NCBI GenBank assembly: GCA_028554645.1
Contig: JAQOOI010000076.1
Location: forward strand, 868,001-932,000
Origin: Omphalotus guepiniiformis
Lineage: Eukaryota > Basidiomycota > Agaricomycetes > Agaricales > Omphalotaceae
DNA length: 64,000 nucleotides
Direction of reading: 5' to 3'
Every line of letters starts with the position of its first letter. Position 1 is the first letter of the stretch. The notes under the pieces were generated by a model, which was not told the DNA's origin, searched no databases, and saw only the letters and a program-made list of their open reading frames with translations. The position numbers and the translations under genes are program-made. Below, piece by piece: positions 49,528 to 56,655 of this stretch.

Positions 49528-51301
49528 TCAGGAGCCTTCATCAAGTACACTAATTACCTTTTGAACAACGCAGGCGATGAAACGGATGTATCGACCAAGA
49601 TCTTTGGTGAAGGACGCCCGAAAAAGGCGGTACTTTCTAGATAATCAGTCAAAGAACTTCAAGGCAAAACAGTAGCTTACTTTGCTTGTCCTGGTATCAA
49701 CGTTCGTAGGTCTCTGATTGGAGATCTAGGGTCGTATTTAGGTTCATGTACAATGCTTTGGACGTGAGATGGCTGCGACATCCCAATCAAACCCAACAAG
49801 TCCTCCTTGGACTTACCGCTGTGCCTTGAAGAGACATCAGCACTACAGAATCGTGGACTAGTACTAGTGGTGACGCCGACATCTTTGACTTGCTTGTGCA
49901 CTGCACTCCCTGGAGTACATTGCATCCTGGTCTCTCGCTCTTCATCGCAGCGCAAAGTGATCCGCTCAAAGTTCAATCCTTGCATTACATCCTGTGTAGT
50001 AGACAGATGAGGGGAGTTAATTGGACTGAGAAGTCTTCCTGGGGTGACATCCTCTGGTCCTGAAGACTCATCGGAATCAGACCCAGAATCAGACGGATAT
50101 GACTCAACGTCCGAGAGATCTGCTACGATGATAGTGACGGTGGGAGAGCGTGTCGCTTCAGCAGACGACCTCCTGCGAGTTCGATTACGAACGGATGGCG
50201 TGCTCGAAGAACCGCTGTGTACTGCTCGGATGGATGAATGGGCCAGAGAAGGGGTCCTGGGAGGTGTTTTATTTCTAGAGGGCCTCTTCTCTCGTCCATT
50301 TACCCTTGAATCAACAGGTGCTACAGGGCTTCCAAGCAGCGATCTCACTGGCAGGGTAGGAGAATGTTCCCTCTTAGAGACCATCTCACTCTCTCCATGA
50401 ACATGCCGACTGCAATTGGGCGAGTTTGATACAGGCACGCTCTGGGATAAGAATTCCTTCTTTGCCACGCGTGCACCGTTCTGACTATCTTCCCCACAAT
50501 GCGCTCGCCTCTTGCCGATGGCTTTATTAGTTTTCGGAGATGGCGTACCACGGATGGTGACATTAGGATGTAAACCAGGATAGCGAGTATCAGGTTCAAA
50601 ACCAGGACCTATAACAGGCGAAGCGGATGCGGATGCTGAAACTGGAGATCCTGGTGCTCGTACAGTGGACGTTATGGGGTCTATCTCCCTCACATAGCCA
50701 TTCTCCAACGCTTTTTGATAAGCGGCTCTGGCCTCACTTTCGGTGGCGTAGCTCTTATGCTGGGATCCAGCACGACCAATAAGAGGAGCAACTTCCAACC
50801 TATATCATGGTCACAATCACTTCATGAGGAACACGAATTCAGGACGAGACTATAGAATTTACCAATCCGAAAATACTCCAACACGTCGTCCAGCAATAAC
50901 AACGTACCACTTCTTGGGTATAAAAGTCGCGTGTGGTTTGAGGTCCAGCGGAGAAGAACAAAGTTGTGAAGTAGGAGGCAAGGACGTTGCCATTGGAGAG
51001 TCTGTTCCGCTTGATGTGGACGCTGTGTTTCGCGGACGCACAAACTCGGAATCCACTACACGGCGGACATGTCCACTGTCCAGCGCTCGTTGATAAACAA
51101 TTCTGGCTTCACTTTCACTGCCGTAGCTTCTGTATTGAGCTCCAGCAACGCGACTGACAAGCGGTACAACGTCTAACCTATTAAATAATAATTGACACTC
51201 GGCACTTGAGACGACAATCAAAGTTTAGGATGCTCTACTTACCAGTCCGTAAAGACCCCTACCTGATGTCCGACAATAACGACATACCACTTCTTGGCCA
51301 T
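49528..51301 (-). CDS. Protein with two tandem RNase H1 N-terminal (viroplasmin/HBD) domains
   Basis: Start at 51301. Domain 1: MAKKWYVVIVGHQVGVFTDW spliced to LDVVPLVSRVAGAQYRSYGS then ESEARIVYQRALDSGHVR. Domain 2: KKWYVVIAGRRVGVFSDW spliced to LEVAPLIGRAGSQHKSYATE then SEARAAYQKALENGYV. Both keep the W-Y-V-V, G-V-F, W and K/R-S-Y pattern of the hybrid-binding domain that in RNase H1 binds RNA:DNA duplexes. No RNase H catalytic domain follows; instead there are about 330 disordered Ser/Pro/Arg-rich residues. A last intron (GTAAGC...TCTAG) appends a short segment ending SVLDEGS at 49528. An intron falls at the same place in both domains, so the repeat arose by internal duplication. The 3' LTR of the retrotransposon ends 51 bp upstream. 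Confidence 0.82.
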
Positions 51302-51347
51302 AGTTGGTGAAGCAGCCCAACAGTCGTAGGAAGCATTCAAGTCTTTC

Positions 51348-51352
51348 CAAAT
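51348..51352. repeat. Target site duplication CAAAT, left
   Basis: CAAAT directly left of the left LTR matches 56651-56655 directly right of the right LTR, the 5-bp duplication expected for Ty1/copia integration. Confidence 0.95.
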
Positions 51353-51536
51353 TGTAAGTCAAGAATAAGTATGATATCCTCAGTGCACACCAATCAAGTG
51401 TGTAAAAACTCGTATTGTGTATCTACCTGTAAGTCAAGAATAAGTATGATATCTACAAACAGGTTAGCACATCACTTGTACATAGGTATAATATAGAGCT
51501 TACCCTCAGTGCACACCAATCAAGTGTGTAAAAACT
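51353..51536 (-). repeat. Internal direct repeat with intron-like insert in the LTR
   Basis: Repeat copy without insert at 51353-51410, spacer of 17 bp at 51411-51427, repeat copy with insert at 51428-51536. The insert (51453-51503) on the minus strand begins GTAAGCTC, contains GTGCTAACCTG eleven bases before its end, and ends TTTGTAG. Removing it at the GT and AG gives exactly the other copy. The right LTR has the same arrangement (insert at 56291-56341). Confidence 0.9.
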
Positions 51537-51812
51537 GAGGGGGGCTCGACGATCGTGTATGTAAGTTATAACTAAACGGAATGACTGTAGGTAGCGAAAG
51601 CGTGTATCAGTAACGAAGGCGTGTATATGTAATATGTAACTAGCGACGGTCTCGAATATATTAAGTACGGGATATAAAACGCATTAGTTGCGAGGCGGGA
51701 AGGTAGTGAGTAACGTGTTTGAAATGTAGTGAAAAGAATATGTAACTACTTAGAAATTGGGAACGTACGTGCAGGGCTTAAACACTCCAATCGTTATGTG
51801 CTTTGTCCAACA
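51353..51812 (-). repeat. LTR, left copy (3' LTR of the element)
   Basis: 460 bp, TGT...ACA ends, reading the same as 56191-56650 at every position I compared. The U5 end (left side here) contains a 58-bp segment twice: 51353-51410 and 51428-51536, the latter interrupted by 51 bp at 51453-51503. Because the element and the next gene are both on the minus strand, this LTR points its U3 promoter towards the tandem-HBD gene. Confidence 0.95.
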
Positions 51813-51820
51813 CTCCCCTA
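51813..51820 (-). other. Polypurine tract of the retrotransposon
   Basis: Minus-strand AGGGGAG directly before the 3' LTR, overlapping the Gag-Pol stop codon TAG. It is short but in the required position for plus-strand priming. Confidence 0.6.
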
Positions 51821-54800
51821 GACCTGCATGTTCGTTCCGGCGTATAACATGAGACCAATCTGCCGACGATGCAGGATCGATCCTAGCCCCTTCGTTAGGA
51901 TATCCGCAGGGTTATCCTCGCTGGGAACGTAGACCACCTTGAGATCACCACGATCGACCGCGTCGCGAAGATAATGATATCGAATGTCAATATGCTTCAC
52001 CCTAGCATGGAACTTAGGGTTCTGAGCCAGCGTGATTGAACCTTTGTTGTCAGCGTGAATGAGAGACGGGAGAGGCACACCATGCCCAATCTCGACAAGG
52101 AAGTGGTGGATCCACCGAGCCTGTTGAGCACCTTTCGCCAACGCAATGTATTCCGCTTCCGTTGTAGAGAGAGCGACGACGTCCTGTCGTTTGGACATCC
52201 AGAAGGTAGGTCCCCCAGCTATGAACGTGACGACGCCAGTAGTAGACCTTCGAGAGTCGATACACGAAGCAAAGTCCGCATCCACGTATGTCACCGGATT
52301 AAGACCTGATGGTGCGTCACGTCGATACGTGATCGAGTAATGTTTCGTGCCAGAGATATATCGAAGGAGGTGGAGCAAGGCATTCCAGTGGGCACGACCA
52401 GGATTATGATTGAAACGACTAAGGAGGTTAGCAGCGTACGCAATGTCTGGTCGACACGCCGCCTGACCAAATTGTACAGCCCCTACAATTTCAGCGTATG
52501 GCTTATCCTTCATAAATGTTATCTCCTCCTCTGTCTTCGGTGCCTGATTAATGGAGAGTACAAGACCTGGGGGTAGAGGTGTAGCCTTGGGTTTTAAGTC
52601 CAGCATCCTATGTTTCGCCAGAAGTCGGTCCCAGTACGCTTCCATGGACAAGGTCGCTACTCCTTCGGTCCTGTCATGTGTGAGACGCATACCTAGAGCG
52701 AACTGGACGCTTTCCGTGTCCTTAATCCGATATGCCTTCCCAATCTCCCCCTTTGCACGATCCCTCTCGTGCTCTGAAGACGAACCCCCCAATGTGTCGT
52801 CGGTATACGTACCCGTGATCGTCTCCCCTGACGTCGATACACGACTACGCACACACTGGTCAGCCTGCGACCTTCGGTACCCCAGCTCCTGGTATGTACC
52901 ATCCAGCTTCCTCCACCAGTTCCGTCCCGCTTGCATTGTCCCGTATATGGACTTGTTAAGCTTCAAGACCTTCCCAGATCCTCTCCCTTCGAAACCTTCA
53001 GGCGGCCACACATATATGTCCTCATCCATCTCAGCGTTCAGGTACGCAGATGTGAAGTCAATCTGCCATATGTAGAACCCGAGAACTACCCATACCGCAA
53101 TTAGTACACGCAAGGATTCGAAACGCATTACCGCCGCAAAAGTTTCCTGGTAATCCTTCCCTGGTTCTTGGCGTCCTCCGTTAACCACCAATCTAGCTTT
53201 TTCATCGACTATGTCTCCGTCGCCGTTGAGTTTGTGAGCGAAGACCCAGAGAGGTACTAGAATTGTCGCGTTAGCGGGAGGATCTTGGAGTGGCCCAAAA
53301 ACACCAAATTCCTTCATCCTCGTCTTTTCTTTCTCGATTGCTCCCGCCCATCTATCCGGTTCTTGCATGGCTCCGTTGAAACTCTTTGGCACCTGCGGAA
53401 TACCCATTGCGATTAACGCAACATTGAACTCGCAGTCGACCTCTCCTAAATCGTCCACCATCTTGGCTAAGTTGGCTCGCGTAGGTCTATCATCAGTAGC
53501 CCAGGCTTCCCCTGATTCCCGTGCCGTGATCTCACGTTGTTGAGACTCGTTAGAGGAGACTAGAGCAGGAGAAGGTGTGTGGTTTCGAGGAGAACGGCGA
53601 AGTTGAACAGCAGGTTGGTTTGTGGGCGGCTGTGGGTCCACGTTTGGCATTTGATCGGCAATTTCGACCCTGACGTCCTCGGCATCCGCATTAACCCCAG
53701 TGACTTCGTCGAGTTGTGAAGATGTCGCAGTGCCGGATGTATCATCCTCTCCATTCTCCCCTACATTCGGTACCAGTGTCCTATGCCCACGTCCTTCTTC
53801 AAACACAACATCGCGACTCTGGATGATGGAGCCTGAGGGCATGTAGAGTAGGTAGCAACCACGCTCCCCGTATCCTACCAATCTCCCCTCAACCGCCCTT
53901 CCGTCCAACTTTCCAGGTGAACCGTCTACAATTGTTGCCCATGCACGTGCCCCAAACGGTCGTAAATGAGCAACACTCTGCCGTCGTTTCAACCATAACT
54001 GCAAGGGAACCTGTGACTTCGAACGCGACGCGGGGAGAAGATTGTCGGTGTAGACGACATATGCAGCCGCCATCGCCCACAGTGAGGGTGGTAAACCTGA
54101 GTCGTGCAAGAGAGTTCGGACGCGATCGAAAATGGAGCGGTGACGTCGCTCTGCCACACCATTCGCCGCAGATGAGTGGGCAGGTATGAACTCGAGCCGA
54201 ATGCCATGTTTGTTTGCCCATGCATGCCAAAGTTGGTTGTCAAATTCTCGACCGTTGTCTACGCGTACGCTTAGTAGTTTCTGTCCTGTCTCCTTCTCTG
54301 CACTGACTCTAAACTTCTCCATCGCATCTAGGGTAGTCTCAGCCTCCTTATTCTTCAGGTAGAAGTCGGTGGTGCGAGACGTATGACCGTCTACTATAGG
54401 CATGGAGTATAGGAGACCCCCCCGTGCTGGGGTCCTCATAGGGCCGGTGAGATCAACGTGGACGCGTTCTAATGGCCTTGACTCTCGCGGCACTTCAGCG
54501 TCGAAGGGTCTTCGAGTCGCTTTCCCCACCAAGCAGTCTACGCATTTCCCATTCACTGAAGTACCCTTCACCTCCAAGTCATCCACGAGGTTCTGTCTAA
54601 GCAATGTTTCGATACGGTCAATTCCTGCATGCGCAAAACGTCGATGCCACGTCTCGAGGTCTACAGGACGTCGCAGGGAACGGGTCTGAGCAGCGAGAGC
54701 TTTCTTAGGAGCTTTTGGAAGACGGTATAAGCGGTGAGACCCTATGCCGGTTAGGAAGTGTTTGCCGCTGGGTGTAAAGAACTTCGCCTGCTTGTTTCCG

Positions 54801-56104
54801 AAGATCAAATGGTACCCCAACTCGTCTAAGGCCCCCACAGACACCAGGTCATTGGTAATATTAGGTGCGTGTAAGGCTTCCTCGAAAATAAGGACTACTT
54901 CCTGATCCCCCTCATAGAAGACTTTCCTCGCACGTCCTCGGCCTACGATCCTAAACGAAGTGCTCTCCTCGGACGATTGACCTGATCTCTCGTAAGGAGT
55001 ATATGTCAGGAAATCCTCCCGACTGCGAAAGAAGTGGTCTGTGGCAGCTGAGTCTGCATATACCTCGCCAGGTACGCGATCGGACATCACAGAGTTCATC
55101 GCGTAGTGCTCGCGGGGTTCGGCACTAGCGGCGTTAGCACTAGGCACGGTTATTTCCACAGAATCTTTCCTCCCTCGCCACCACGCGGGATACTGGCCTT
55201 CCTTCCCTCCTCCCTTCCTATAGCATTCCTCCTTCGTGTGGCCGTCTCGAGCACAATTCTCGCACTTCTTCCCATTCCTTGGACCCTTGGAGAACTTAGC
55301 GCTTATCCTGCGCTCTAGCTCTTCAATCTTGGTCAACACTGCGGCATGCGCTTGCGAACCAAGCTGGGATCCCGACATGGCATCATCTCCACGGTTTTCC
55401 ACACGTGAGTAAGATAACGAAATCTGCTGGATTACTGAACCTGACGTGGGGTATAAAGCCGATGACGCGAGCAAATTCTGGATGATAGTGTCGAAATCTT
55501 TGGATGGAAATGCGGCCAGGATGATCTGCCGAAATGCTGTGTCGTCTATCTTGTTCCCTGCTTCCACTGCCTCCTGACGTAGAGACCTGAGGGTCTTGAA
55601 GAAGTTATCCAAAGCTTCTCCTCCCTTGAAGACATAGGATCGAAGTTTCCTCTCTGTCAGCACTTTCCGCATCTCGTCCTTCGCCGCATACTCGGTGTCG
55701 AATGCGACCATCAACTCGCGGGCAGTCATAGTGTCGGCATCAGCAATAAGCGAAGGGAGATAGTCCACATGGGCCTCGATGACTCCTTTCGCGCGATCGT
55801 TGCGGAACCTCCATTCCTCGAACGACGGGATAATCGAATAGACTGGGGTTGACGCAGTGGTGGGAAGGGCCTGACTCGGGGTTGACGTCGCTTCTCCGGC
55901 TTCTGGGGTGGGGGCCGTGACAACTACCACAACCTCGGATGGCTTCTTGATAGAATCATCTATGTAGCCTATCAATCCTTGGGCGCGAAGTGCGTTTTCG
56001 ATTTTGCGTTTTACTGGCTTCCAACTGACTCGGATTCCTCCATCGAACTTCTGGTCTTCTGCGACTTCGAGAATCGGCGGAGGGATAGCTCCGTTGCTGG
56101 CCAT
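51818..56104 (-). CDS. Ty1/copia Gag-Pol polyprotein
   Basis: 1428 residues without frameshift or stop. Gag-like region (about 90-260, EEWRFRNDRAKGVIEAHV), zinc knuckle CENCARDGHTKEEC at 281-294, aspartic protease motif YADSAATDHF at 349-358, integrase HHCC zinc region (His 487 and 492, Cys 521 and 524), integrase catalytic Asp 551, Asp 616 (RVDNGREFD) and Glu 652 (NGVAERRHR), reverse transcriptase QIDFTSAYLNAE at about 1014 and the catalytic YTDD at 1100-1103, and RNase H acids at Asp 1275, Glu 1316-1318, Asp 1352 and Asp 1401. Gag and Pol lie in one frame, as in copia. The RT box is YTDD instead of the common YVDD, and the protease has DSA where DSG is usual. Confidence 0.96.
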   Translation of the reverse strand: MASNGAIPPPILEVAEDQKFDGGIRVSWKPVKRKIENALRAQGLIGYIDDSIKKPSEVVVVVTAPTPEAGEATSTPSQALPTTASTPVYSIIPSFEEWRFRNDRAKGVIEAHVDYLPSLIADADTMTARELMVAFDTEYAAKDEMRKVLTERKLRSYVFKGGEALDNFFKTLRSLRQEAVEAGNKIDDTAFRQIILAAFPSKDFDTIIQNLLASSALYPTSGSVIQQISLSYSRVENRGDDAMSGSQLGSQAHAAVLTKIEELERRISAKFSKGPRNGKKCENCARDGHTKEECYRKGGGKEGQYPAWWRGRKDSVEITVPSANAASAEPREHYAMNSVMSDRVPGEVYADSAATDHFFRSREDFLTYTPYERSGQSSEESTSFRIVGRGRARKVFYEGDQEVVLIFEEALHAPNITNDLVSVGALDELGYHLIFGNKQAKFFTPSGKHFLTGIGSHRLYRLPKAPKKALAAQTRSLRRPVDLETWHRRFAHAGIDRIETLLRQNLVDDLEVKGTSVNGKCVDCLVGKATRRPFDAEVPRESRPLERVHVDLTGPMRTPARGGLLYSMPIVDGHTSRTTDFYLKNKEAETTLDAMEKFRVSAEKETGQKLLSVRVDNGREFDNQLWHAWANKHGIRLEFIPAHSSAANGVAERRHRSIFDRVRTLLHDSGLPPSLWAMAAAYVVYTDNLLPASRSKSQVPLQLWLKRRQSVAHLRPFGARAWATIVDGSPGKLDGRAVEGRLVGYGERGCYLLYMPSGSIIQSRDVVFEEGRGHRTLVPNVGENGEDDTSGTATSSQLDEVTGVNADAEDVRVEIADQMPNVDPQPPTNQPAVQLRRSPRNHTPSPALVSSNESQQREITARESGEAWATDDRPTRANLAKMVDDLGEVDCEFNVALIAMGIPQVPKSFNGAMQEPDRWAGAIEKEKTRMKEFGVFGPLQDPPANATILVPLWVFAHKLNGDGDIVDEKARLVVNGGRQEPGKDYQETFAAVMRFESLRVLIAVWVVLGFYIWQIDFTSAYLNAEMDEDIYVWPPEGFEGRGSGKVLKLNKSIYGTMQAGRNWWRKLDGTYQELGYRRSQADQCVRSRVSTSGETITGTYTDDTLGGSSSEHERDRAKGEIGKAYRIKDTESVQFALGMRLTHDRTEGVATLSMEAYWDRLLAKHRMLDLKPKATPLPPGLVLSINQAPKTEEEITFMKDKPYAEIVGAVQFGQAACRPDIAYAANLLSRFNHNPGRAHWNALLHLLRYISGTKHYSITYRRDAPSGLNPVTYVDADFASCIDSRRSTTGVVTFIAGGPTFWMSKRQDVVALSTTEAEYIALAKGAQQARWIHHFLVEIGHGVPLPSLIHADNKGSITLAQNPKFHARVKHIDIRYHYLRDAVDRGDLKVVYVPSEDNPADILTKGLGSILHRRQIGLMLYAGTNMQV

Positions 56105-56178
56105 ATCTTTGTATCTTTCGGGGTTGATGTGAGTTTTCTGTGATTGGCTATTCTTTCTTCAGGGTTTAGCAGCGGGCG

Positions 56179-56190
56179 GGGCCCATAACC
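56179..56190 (-). other. Primer binding site, half-tRNA initiator-Met type
   Basis: Directly after the 5' LTR the element reads GGTTATGGGCCC. This is complementary to the anticodon loop of initiator tRNA-Met (CAU followed by AACC), not to a tRNA 3' CCA end. Drosophila copia is known to prime from such an internal site on a tRNA-Met half. Confidence 0.7.
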
Positions 56191-56650
56191 TGTAAGTCAA
56201 GAATAAGTATGATATCCTCAGTGCACACCAATCAAGTGTGTAAAAACTCGTATTGTGTATCTACCTGTAAGTCAAGAATAAGTATGATATCTACAAACAG
56301 GTTAGCACATCACTTGTACATAGGTATAATATAGAGCTTACCCTCAGTGCACACCAATCAAGTGTGTAAAAACTGAGGGGGGCTCGACGATCGTGTATGT
56401 AAGTTATAACTAAACGGAATGACTGTAGGTAGCGAAAGCGTGTATCAGTAACGAAGGCGTGTATATGTAATATGTAACTAGCGACGGTCTCGAATATATT
56501 AAGTACGGGATATAAAACGCATTAGTTGCGAGGCGGGAAGGTAGTGAGTAACGTGTTTGAAATGTAGTGAAAAGAATATGTAACTACTTAGAAATTGGGA
56601 ACGTACGTGCAGGGCTTAAACACTCCAATCGTTATGTGCTTTGTCCAACA
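56191..56650 (-). repeat. LTR, right copy (5' LTR of the element)
   Basis: 460 bp with TGT...ACA ends, matching the left LTR. Its transcription would start on the minus strand and run through the 51-bp intron-like block (56291-56341) before the primer binding site and the Gag-Pol ATG at 56104, leaving an 86-base leader after the LTR. Confidence 0.95.
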
Positions 56651-56655
56651 CAAAT
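56651..56655. repeat. Target site duplication CAAAT, right
   Basis: Second copy of the 5-bp duplication. Beyond it the sequence up to about 56720 continues the original promoter of the tandem-HBD gene. Confidence 0.95.

What the first reader, a model, noticed from the sequence alone, without database searches (positions are those of the whole stretch)
51353..51536. LTR holds an intron-like block and a precise spliced copy of the same segment
Seen directly: each LTR contains a 58-bp segment twice, 17 bp apart. One copy is interrupted by 51 bp (51453-51503; 56291-56341 in the other LTR). In the element's sense the insert starts GTAAGC, has a CTAAC branch-like site 11 bases before its end, and finishes TGTAG; deleting it at GT and AG yields exactly the second copy. 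The copy at the LTR tip is therefore what a spliced RNA would give. The interrupted copy ends in ACA followed by GGTA, resembling the present LTR end (ACA followed by GGTTA of the primer site), as if it had once been the LTR terminus. Inference: a spliced leader RNA was reverse transcribed and recombined with unspliced template, extending U5. Alternatives are intron gain in one copy, or an exact deletion.
Basis: partly seen in the sequence, partly recalled or inferred. Interest (0 to 1): 0.88.

Follow-up and report, generated by a model that had tools for sequence, protein, structure and literature searches.

The report
LTR tip rewritten by RNA splicing
In a likely fungal genome, many families of one kind of jumping gene (copia retrotransposons) carry in each end repeat a short segment cut by an intron-like block and, at or near the repeat's tip, an intron-free copy of the same segment, which is likely rewritten from spliced RNA each time the element copies itself.

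Summary
The 460-bp copia LTRs hold, in sense order, E1(33)-intron(51, GT..AG)-E2(25)-spacer(17)-E1E2(58), then in the 5' LTR a primer site matching half a tRNA-Met. The layout recurs in 24 diverged LTR types of this genome. In 24 of 24 the intron-free copy is nearest to its own interrupted copy, so the pair evolves in concert. A second intron fits: donor after copy-1 E2, acceptor the AG ending copy 2 (branch-site motif in 15 of 24, 1.2 in shuffles). Splicing would remove the old copy 2 and leave E1-E2 against the primer site. I infer that this spliced leader is reverse transcribed and lands on copy 2 of an unspliced 3' LTR, rewriting the tip while keeping the introns. A hairpin that needs U3 bases upstream of the likely start site covers the first donor in 24 of 24 types (27-type means 14.9 against 4.5 kcal/mol to open) and would block splicing in the 3' LTR only; foamy viruses are a precedent. 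Two elements with both LTRs collapsed to one spliced copy, one a mosaic switching at E1/E2, look like mis-transfers. No RNA evidence was on hand.

The parts
51353..51812 (-). 3' LTR in sense (460 bp)
   Evidence: identical to the 5' LTR; CAAAT at 51348-51352
56191..56650 (-). 5' LTR in sense (460 bp)
   Evidence: CAAAT at 56651-56655
56342..56374 (-). E1, copy 1 (5' LTR): first 33 nt of the likely transcript; its 5' end follows CCCCCCTC
   Evidence: TATA at -34
56291..56341 (-). intron 1 (51 nt, GTAAGC..CTAAC..TGTAG), splicing not shown
56266..56290 (-). E2, copy 1
56249..56265 (-). 17-nt spacer; with the G at 56265 it gives ACAG|GTAGAT, likely donor of intron 2
56190..56264 (-). likely intron 2 (75 nt): spacer plus the whole of copy 2, ending TTACAG at the primer site
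   Evidence: sequence; comparison over 24 LTR types
56191..56248 (-). copy 2: E1E2 without intron, at the LTR tip (5' LTR)
   Evidence: 0 of 58 mismatches to spliced copy 1
56171..56190 (-). predicted primer binding site: 19 of 20 bases complementary to tRNA-Met (CAT), first base against tRNA position 39
56375..56379 (-). U3 arm (CCCTC) of the predicted hairpin over donor 1; partner 56341-56345
56405..56408 (-). TATA at -34 of the likely start site
51504..51536 (-). E1, copy 1 (3' LTR)
51453..51503 (-). intron 1 (3' LTR)
51428..51452 (-). E2, copy 1 (3' LTR)
51411..51427 (-). spacer (3' LTR)
51353..51410 (-). copy 2 (3' LTR), proposed landing site (R) for the spliced strong-stop cDNA; the next base is host A, so the acceptor AG is not formed here
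51818..56104 (-). gag-pol reading frame, 1428 aa (gag, gag-pre-integrase, rve, RVT_2: copia order)

Best explanation
Each LTR holds one short segment twice, once with a GT-AG block inside (E1-intron 1-E2) and once without it at the LTR tip, and the second copy is likely rewritten in every replication cycle from a leader RNA that would be spliced at two introns. Proposed order: (1) transcription would start at the first base of E1 in the 5' LTR; (2) intron 1 and intron 2 would be removed, intron 2 running from the donor after copy-1 E2 to the AG that ends copy 2, so that the old copy 2 leaves with it and E1-E2 abuts the predicted half-tRNA primer site; (3) the minus-strand strong-stop cDNA would then be a fresh copy of E1E2; (4) in the 3' LTR of the same RNA, U3 sequence just upstream of E1 would pair over donor 1 and keep intron 1 in; intron 2 would stay in because poly(A) lies before its acceptor or because the acceptor's G, which belongs to the primer site, is missing; (5) the cDNA would anneal to copy 2 in the 3' LTR (58 nt, against 33 nt of E1 in copy 1) and be extended through spacer, E2, intron 1, E1 and U3. 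The new LTR would thus keep the introns, and its tip would be a copy of spliced copy 1. Shown from sequence: the two copies and their concerted evolution, the splice signals, the inverted repeat over the donor, the match of the primer site to a tRNA, the collapsed LTRs. Inferred: start site, splicing in vivo, the transfer route, the poly(A) site.
For: (a) Same layout in 24 LTR types; intron 1 of 51-59 nt with GT..AG (L012 aligned; L043 used for its relative L022, whose donor is decayed; L046 and L110 also carry the layout but were not in the 24). (b) Sister copy is the nearest copy in 24 of 24 types: 95-100% within an element against 69-92% to the best other type. (c) Branch-site motif ACTNAY near the 3' end of intron 1 in 19 of 24 (2.2 in shuffles) and of intron 2, that is inside copy 2, in 15 of 24 (1.2 in shuffles, motif chosen after another had failed); three introns of one host actin gene, read by eye, are 55, 58 and 62 nt. 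(d) TATA at -42 to -27 of E1 in 19 of 27 types, against 3-5 of 27 in four 16-nt windows further upstream. (e) Cost of opening donor 1: mean 14.9 kcal/mol with 25 nt of U3 upstream, 4.5 from E1, 7.0 with shuffled U3, over 27 types; at most 2 of 100 shuffles reach the observed value in 24 of 24 two-intron types. Stem pairs co-vary: C-G 21/T-A 3 at -1; C-G 10/A-T 11/T-A 1 and 2 mispairs at -5. The arm is weaker before copy 2 (1-4 of 6 pairs in the 22 types that could be scored, against 4-6 in 24). (f) Collapsed LTRs (E1E2 once, no introns) at both ends of two elements: C22 (286 bp identical) and C17. The C22 element is 45-55 of 60 identical to the C63 element in twelve windows up to about 0.8 kb before its 3' LTR, then 58-60 of 60 in seventeen windows through U3 (238 of 238 from LTR start to the end of E1), then 43 of 50 columns in E2-E3: the switch lies where the transfer would occur. 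(g) Exactly one interrupted copy in 27 of 27 LTR types: no LTR that unspliced RNA landing on copy 2 would have lengthened.
Against: No RNA data: splicing, start site and poly(A) site are unproven. Three LTR types (L077, L081, L084) have intron 2 only, and there the donor test fails (9-17 of 100 shuffles reach the value). A first donor test (mean unpaired probability) pointed the same way in the means but only 2 of 27 types stood out from shuffles at 5%. L032 and L080 mispair at -5 and -6, L001 and L003 at -6. The acceptor AG of intron 2 is restored by a host G in 5 of 14 3' LTRs read (L004, L006, L039, L041, L045), and LTRs with an E3 carry the AG inside the LTR, so loss of the acceptor cannot be the general safeguard. 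33 of the 54 primer-site hits show no such layout (22 L007-type, 8 L010-type, 3 other), so it is dispensable for some copia families. A collapsed LTR could also come from deletion between the two E1 copies, and the parent of the C22 element may already have been collapsed. The inverted repeat could instead be a DNA palindrome bound by a protein.
Confidence: 0.7

Rival explanations
1. Spliced leader cDNA rewrites the tip only now and then; most cycles use unspliced RNA and simply copy the existing tip.
For: The tip of an unspliced RNA is the same 58 nt, so an unspliced round would leave the layout unchanged if the cDNA lands on copy 1. Concerted evolution needs only enough renewals per mutation.
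Against: Unspliced rounds landing on copy 2 would give longer LTRs with two interrupted copies, and none of 27 types has one. The intron-2 signals and the U3 arm are kept in 24 types, which suggests that splicing matters each round.
Confidence: 0.16
2. The copies are kept alike by DNA-level gene conversion, or by unequal exchange and slippage between short tandem repeats, with no role for spliced RNA after one founding event.
For: The copies lie only some 7-25 nt apart, and collapsed LTRs exist.
Against: Conversion would have to act on exons of about 20-40 nt on both sides of a 51-59-nt block in 24 types without spreading or removing the block. It explains neither the intron-2 acceptor in copy 2 nor the U3 arm.
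Confidence: 0.09
3. Plain duplication, then intron gain (or an introner-type insertion) into one copy.
For: Needs only two ordinary events in one family.
Against: 24 types have the block at the same place with the sister copies nearest to each other. The block is not seen dispersed: a genome search with the 184-bp segment, which skips very common words, found six LTR hits only.
Confidence: 0.02
4. The inverted repeat around E1 is a palindromic DNA site for a regulator, and intron 1 stays in the 3' LTR for another reason (a rival to step 4 only).
For: Inverted repeats with compensatory changes also suit a dimeric DNA-binding site.
Against: The 3' arm sits on the splice donor in all 24 two-intron types, and the 5' arm is weaker before copy 2, which has no donor. 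Foamy viruses block a donor in the 3' LTR by RNA structure (PMC3694450, abstract and section 11 read).
Confidence: 0.2

Closest known systems
Foamy viruses (major splice donor inside R; U1 snRNP and RNA structure decide which LTR is polyadenylated; PMC3694450 abstract and section 11 read, PMC5035957 passages)
   Same: A donor in R after the start site; RNA that includes 13 nt upstream of +1 (3' LTR) folds differently, with two instead of four U1-binding bases unpaired, and is reported to block U1 there.
   Different: Retroviruses; the passages that I read report no acceptor inside the LTR, no intron-free second copy, and no use of a spliced leader to rebuild the LTR.
Drosophila copia and its half-tRNA-iMet priming (recalled)
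   Same: Primer site GGTTATGGGCCC pairing with tRNA-Met up to position 39; copia domain order.
   Different: Copia splicing, as recalled, removes pol to make a gag mRNA; no intron within the LTR is recalled.
BARE1 and other retrotransposons with introns (BARE1 passages in PMC3735527; Ogre, EVADE and Cer1 as named in passages of PMC12786077)
   Same: LTR retrotransposons whose RNA is spliced.
   Different: The BARE1, Ogre and EVADE introns serve subgenomic RNAs, and spliced Cer1 mRNA encodes a nuclear export protein; the BARE1 paper says that spliced RNA must be kept out of replication. Here spliced RNA would be the template at the 5' end.
Intron-marked Ty reporters (passages in PMC12786077)
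   Same: A spliced RNA intermediate is turned back into DNA.
   Different: There the intron is lost at each jump; here the layout would keep it.

Membership tests
Ty1/copia LTR retrotransposon | Integrase upstream of reverse transcriptase (RVT_2) in one pol frame | tested here: met
   one 1428-aa frame; gag, gag-pre-integrase and rve in the N-terminal piece, RVT_2 in the C-terminal piece
Ty1/copia LTR retrotransposon | LTRs TG..CA with a 5-bp target duplication | tested here: met
copia-type half-tRNA-iMet priming | Primer site complementary to an internal tRNA stretch ending near position 39, next to the LTR | tested here: met
   19 of 20 for three tRNA-Met genes, 18 of 20 for the fourth; that they are initiator tRNAs rests on recalled features; priming itself not tested
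Spliceosomal introns of this host | GT..AG, branch-site motif, host-like length | tested here: met
   three introns of one host actin gene of 55, 58, 62 nt read by eye
Spliceosomal introns of this host | Spliced in vivo | not testable with these tools
   no RNA reads on hand
Foamy-virus-like control of LTR splice donors | Donor in R folded away only when U3 is transcribed | tested here: inconclusive
   prediction only: met in 24 of 24 two-intron types, not met in 3 of 3 intron-2-only types; weak by the first measure
Foamy-virus-like control of LTR splice donors | Donor suppresses poly(A) in the 5' LTR; U1 binding | not testable with these tools
   poly(A) site unknown
Introner-type intron gain | Intron sequence dispersed through host genes | tested here: not met
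   six hits, all LTRs of this family and the 80-81% sister family; the search skips very common words
LTR retrotransposon that replicates from unspliced genomic RNA | 5' leader of the reverse-transcribed RNA is unspliced | tested here: inconclusive
   concerted evolution and collapsed LTRs point to spliced leaders; no particle RNA

The most novel reading that the evidence does not exclude
A previously undescribed route of LTR replication: splicing of the 5' leader is an obligatory part of reverse transcription. The LTR stores an interrupted and a pre-spliced form of R; the transcript's spliced 5' end pairs with the pre-spliced form at its 3' end, the old pre-spliced form is discarded each round as part of an intron, and a U3 hairpin makes splicing specific to the 5' LTR. 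The system is ancient in fungal copia elements, and the same masking would also solve the problem of reading poly(A) in one LTR only.
Probability: 0.58. Interest if true: 0.93.

Novelty: new variant of a known kind. Interest (0 to 1): 0.88.

Why it matters
Textbook LTR replication needs an unspliced genome whose two ends carry the same R. Here R would match only after splicing, and splicing would be built into the first strand transfer. It offers a testable answer to how two identical LTRs in one RNA are treated differently, gives a natural record of spliced RNA entering the genome while its introns survive, and makes conserved non-coding LTR sequence readable (leader exons, donor mask, strand-transfer site).

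Tried and rejected
Old primer site in the spacer: rejected, since the bases after copy-1 E2 read as splice donors across types. First donor test (mean unpaired probability): means 0.18 with U3, 0.32 leader, 0.26 shuffled, lower with U3 than without in 26 of 27, but only 2 of 27 types at or under 5% of shuffles; replaced by the cost of opening the donor. Branch-site motif YTRAY gave nothing: 3 of 24 in intron 1 (10.2 in shuffles) and 8 of 24 in intron 2 (7.2 in shuffles); CTNAY (22 and 19 of 24; 8.1 and 5.8 in shuffles) and ACTNAY, chosen after seeing the sequences, gave the counts used, so that test is post hoc. Hairpin-site spacing as proof that no LTR has two interrupted copies: dropped as unsound (a second copy would lack the U3 arm) and replaced by the count. 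Relatives outside this genome: viral-contig scans with two proteins found none. Primer tRNA for the L094-type site: the one candidate place checked holds no tRNA gene. Copy-1/copy-2 differences in L032, L069, L082 and L102 as signs of different parents: rejected for these, because the other LTR of the same element lacks them, so they arose after insertion. Papers: no description of introns inside LTRs or of splice-renewed LTRs in the listings of searches (open-access library only); two surveys of fungal LTR and copia elements hold the word intron 0 times in the main text (PMC5445492 and PMC3248453, passages).

Full report
WHAT IS THERE. The element lies on the minus strand. Its LTRs are 51353-51812 and 56191-56650, 460 bp, identical, with the target duplication CAAAT. 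It encodes one 1428-aa frame with copia-type domains. In sense, the last 184 bp of each LTR read E1 (33 nt), a 51-nt block with GTAAGC, CTAAC and TGTAG, E2 (25 nt), a 17-nt spacer, then E1E2 again without the block, and (in the 5' LTR) at once the predicted primer site GGTTATGGGCCC. The copies match at 58 of 58. The primer site pairs with tRNA-Met (CAT) genes of this genome at 19 of 20 bases (18 of 20 for one of four), first base against tRNA position 39, the half-tRNA arrangement recalled for Drosophila copia.

THE HOST. The best named matches of the reverse transcriptase are mushroom-forming fungi (Pleurotus, Lentinula, Mycena, best 120 of 359 listed), so a fungus is likely.

NOT A ONE-OFF. 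A pattern search for the primer site, one mismatch allowed, gave 54 places: 16 carry the full layout (one, L022, with a decayed donor), 4 carry an intron-2-only form, 1 is collapsed, 33 lack it (22 of one large family L007, 8 of L010, 3 other). Two searches for the inverted repeat around E1 gave 26 and 17 sites, against 0 for the reversed patterns. With these and the 3' LTRs beside reverse-transcriptase matches I defined 24 LTR types with both introns. A scan for this kind of interrupted duplication over 109 loci (some overlapping) on both strands gave 51 strand hits, 44 of them with GT..AG, none with the reverse signature, and 0 of 86 shuffled loci gave any hit. A tree of 25 reverse-transcriptase pieces places the layout in several long-separated branches, with the L007 family as the sister of the intron-2-only group, which suggests an old layout with losses; long branches make the deep part unsure.

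CONCERTED EVOLUTION. In 24 of 24 types the sister copy is the nearest copy (95-100% identity); the best match to another type is 69-92%. If the duplication had been made once and inherited, copy 1 would be nearest to copy 1 of the sister family. Instead copy 2 follows its own copy 1, less the block.

THE SECOND INTRON. After copy-1 E2 a GT follows in the 24 types (such as GTAGAT, GTACTG, GTGAAT, GTATAT, GTAATA, GTATTG; in L043 two bases later than in its relative L022) and GTATGT in the intron-2-only types. Copy 2 ends in AG in the 20 types read in a 5' LTR, with the G of the primer site where the LTR ends in CA, and inside the LTR in L101; L043, L045 and L099 were read in 3' or solo LTRs and are not counted. 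E2 of copy 2 holds a branch-site motif ACTNAY in 15 of 24 (1.2 in shuffles); intron 1 has it in 19 of 24 (2.2 in shuffles; motif chosen after a first motif failed). Splicing from that GT to that AG would remove spacer and copy 2 together and leave E1-E2 against the primer site or against a short E3. In L077, L081, L092 and L084 there is no intron 1, but the same second intron is present. So intron 2 is the common core. Three introns of one host actin gene are 55, 58 and 62 nt (read by eye); intron 1 is 51-59 nt.

START SITE. E1 begins at AG after a pyrimidine-rich run (CCCCCCTC, CACCTC, CACCCTC). TATA lies 27-42 nt upstream in 19 of 27 types, against 3-5 of 27 in four 16-nt windows further up. 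Copy 2 begins at the same AG, as expected if a cDNA ended at the capped 5' end of the RNA. This is an inference.

HOW THE INTRONS SURVIVE. The bases just upstream of E1 can pair with the end of E1 and donor 1. These bases are in U3: absent from the 5' leader if transcription starts at E1, present in the 3' LTR of the same RNA. Opening donor 1 costs 14.9 kcal/mol on average with U3, 4.5 without, 7.0 with shuffled U3 (27 types); in 24 of 24 two-intron types at most 2 of 100 shuffles reach the observed value; in the three intron-2-only types 9-17 do. An earlier measure was weak type by type. Pairs change together at -1 and -5; four types have a mispair at -6 and two of these also at -5. The arm is weaker before copy 2. 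A published precedent is the foamy-virus donor in R, reported to be bound by U1 in the 5' LTR and blocked by RNA structure in the 3' LTR (PMC3694450, abstract and section 11; PMC5035957, passages). Loss of the intron-2 acceptor cannot be the general safeguard: of 14 3' LTRs read without an E3, 9 lack the G and 5 have it from the host base. Poly(A) before the acceptor would serve, but the poly(A) site is unknown.

MIS-TRANSFERS. Two elements have both LTRs collapsed to a single E1E2 without introns: C22 (L078, L107; 286 bp identical, duplication CTTCA read) and C17 (L109, L041), each with a close relative in full form (L103; L110). This is what would arise if the spliced cDNA landed on E1 of copy 1. 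The C22 element is also a mosaic: against the C63 element it is 45-55 of 60 identical along pol (twelve windows), 58-60 of 60 from about 0.8 kb before the 3' LTR through U3 (seventeen windows), 238 of 238 from LTR start to the end of E1, then 43 of 50 columns in E2-E3. The breakpoint in the leader is where a strong-stop cDNA of one RNA would have been extended on the 3' end of another. DNA recombination is not excluded, and the parent may already have been collapsed. No type has two interrupted copies (27 of 27 with one).

MODEL AND LIMITS. The spliced leader would give a strong-stop cDNA that is a fresh copy of E1E2; it would anneal over 58 nt to copy 2 in the unspliced 3' LTR and be extended into spacer, E2, intron 1, E1 and U3. 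The poly(A) site must lie in or after copy 2. Listings of the open-access library showed no paper on introns inside LTRs or splice-renewed LTRs; subscription papers are not covered.

Noticed in passing
L094, L095, L096, L106, L109, L110: These types have another sequence after the LTR (GATTCGCAGTCAGA or a one-base variant) instead of the tRNA-Met primer site; the one candidate tRNA place checked held no tRNA gene.
   Followed up: partly
L097 and L098 (C65:2793000-2798450): A pair of LTRs with the full layout, about 4.9 kb apart, but no copia reverse-transcriptase match between them (a search that gives lower bounds): degenerate, or a non-autonomous element.
   Followed up: no
C57:214262, C57:273083, C69:44625, C69:149306 (L099 type): Same hairpin sequence at four places with no reverse-transcriptase match nearby: solo LTRs or non-autonomous copies.
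   Followed up: no
L050 (C16, 3' LTR): U3-E1 is present twice in tandem (140 bp apart), followed by a spliced E1E2: looks like another template-jump product.
   Followed up: partly
L010, L014 and relatives (L010 family): LTR end has a 26-nt GTGAGT..TTGTAG block without a duplicated leader; may be a relic of the same system.
   Followed up: no
3' LTR flanks of L004, L006, L039, L041, L045: 5 of 14 3' LTRs without an E3 are followed by a host G, a little more than one in four.
   Followed up: no
window 50859-50922 and 51239-51302: A 64-nt direct repeat (77%) 380 bp apart beside the 3' LTR, outside the element.
   Followed up: no
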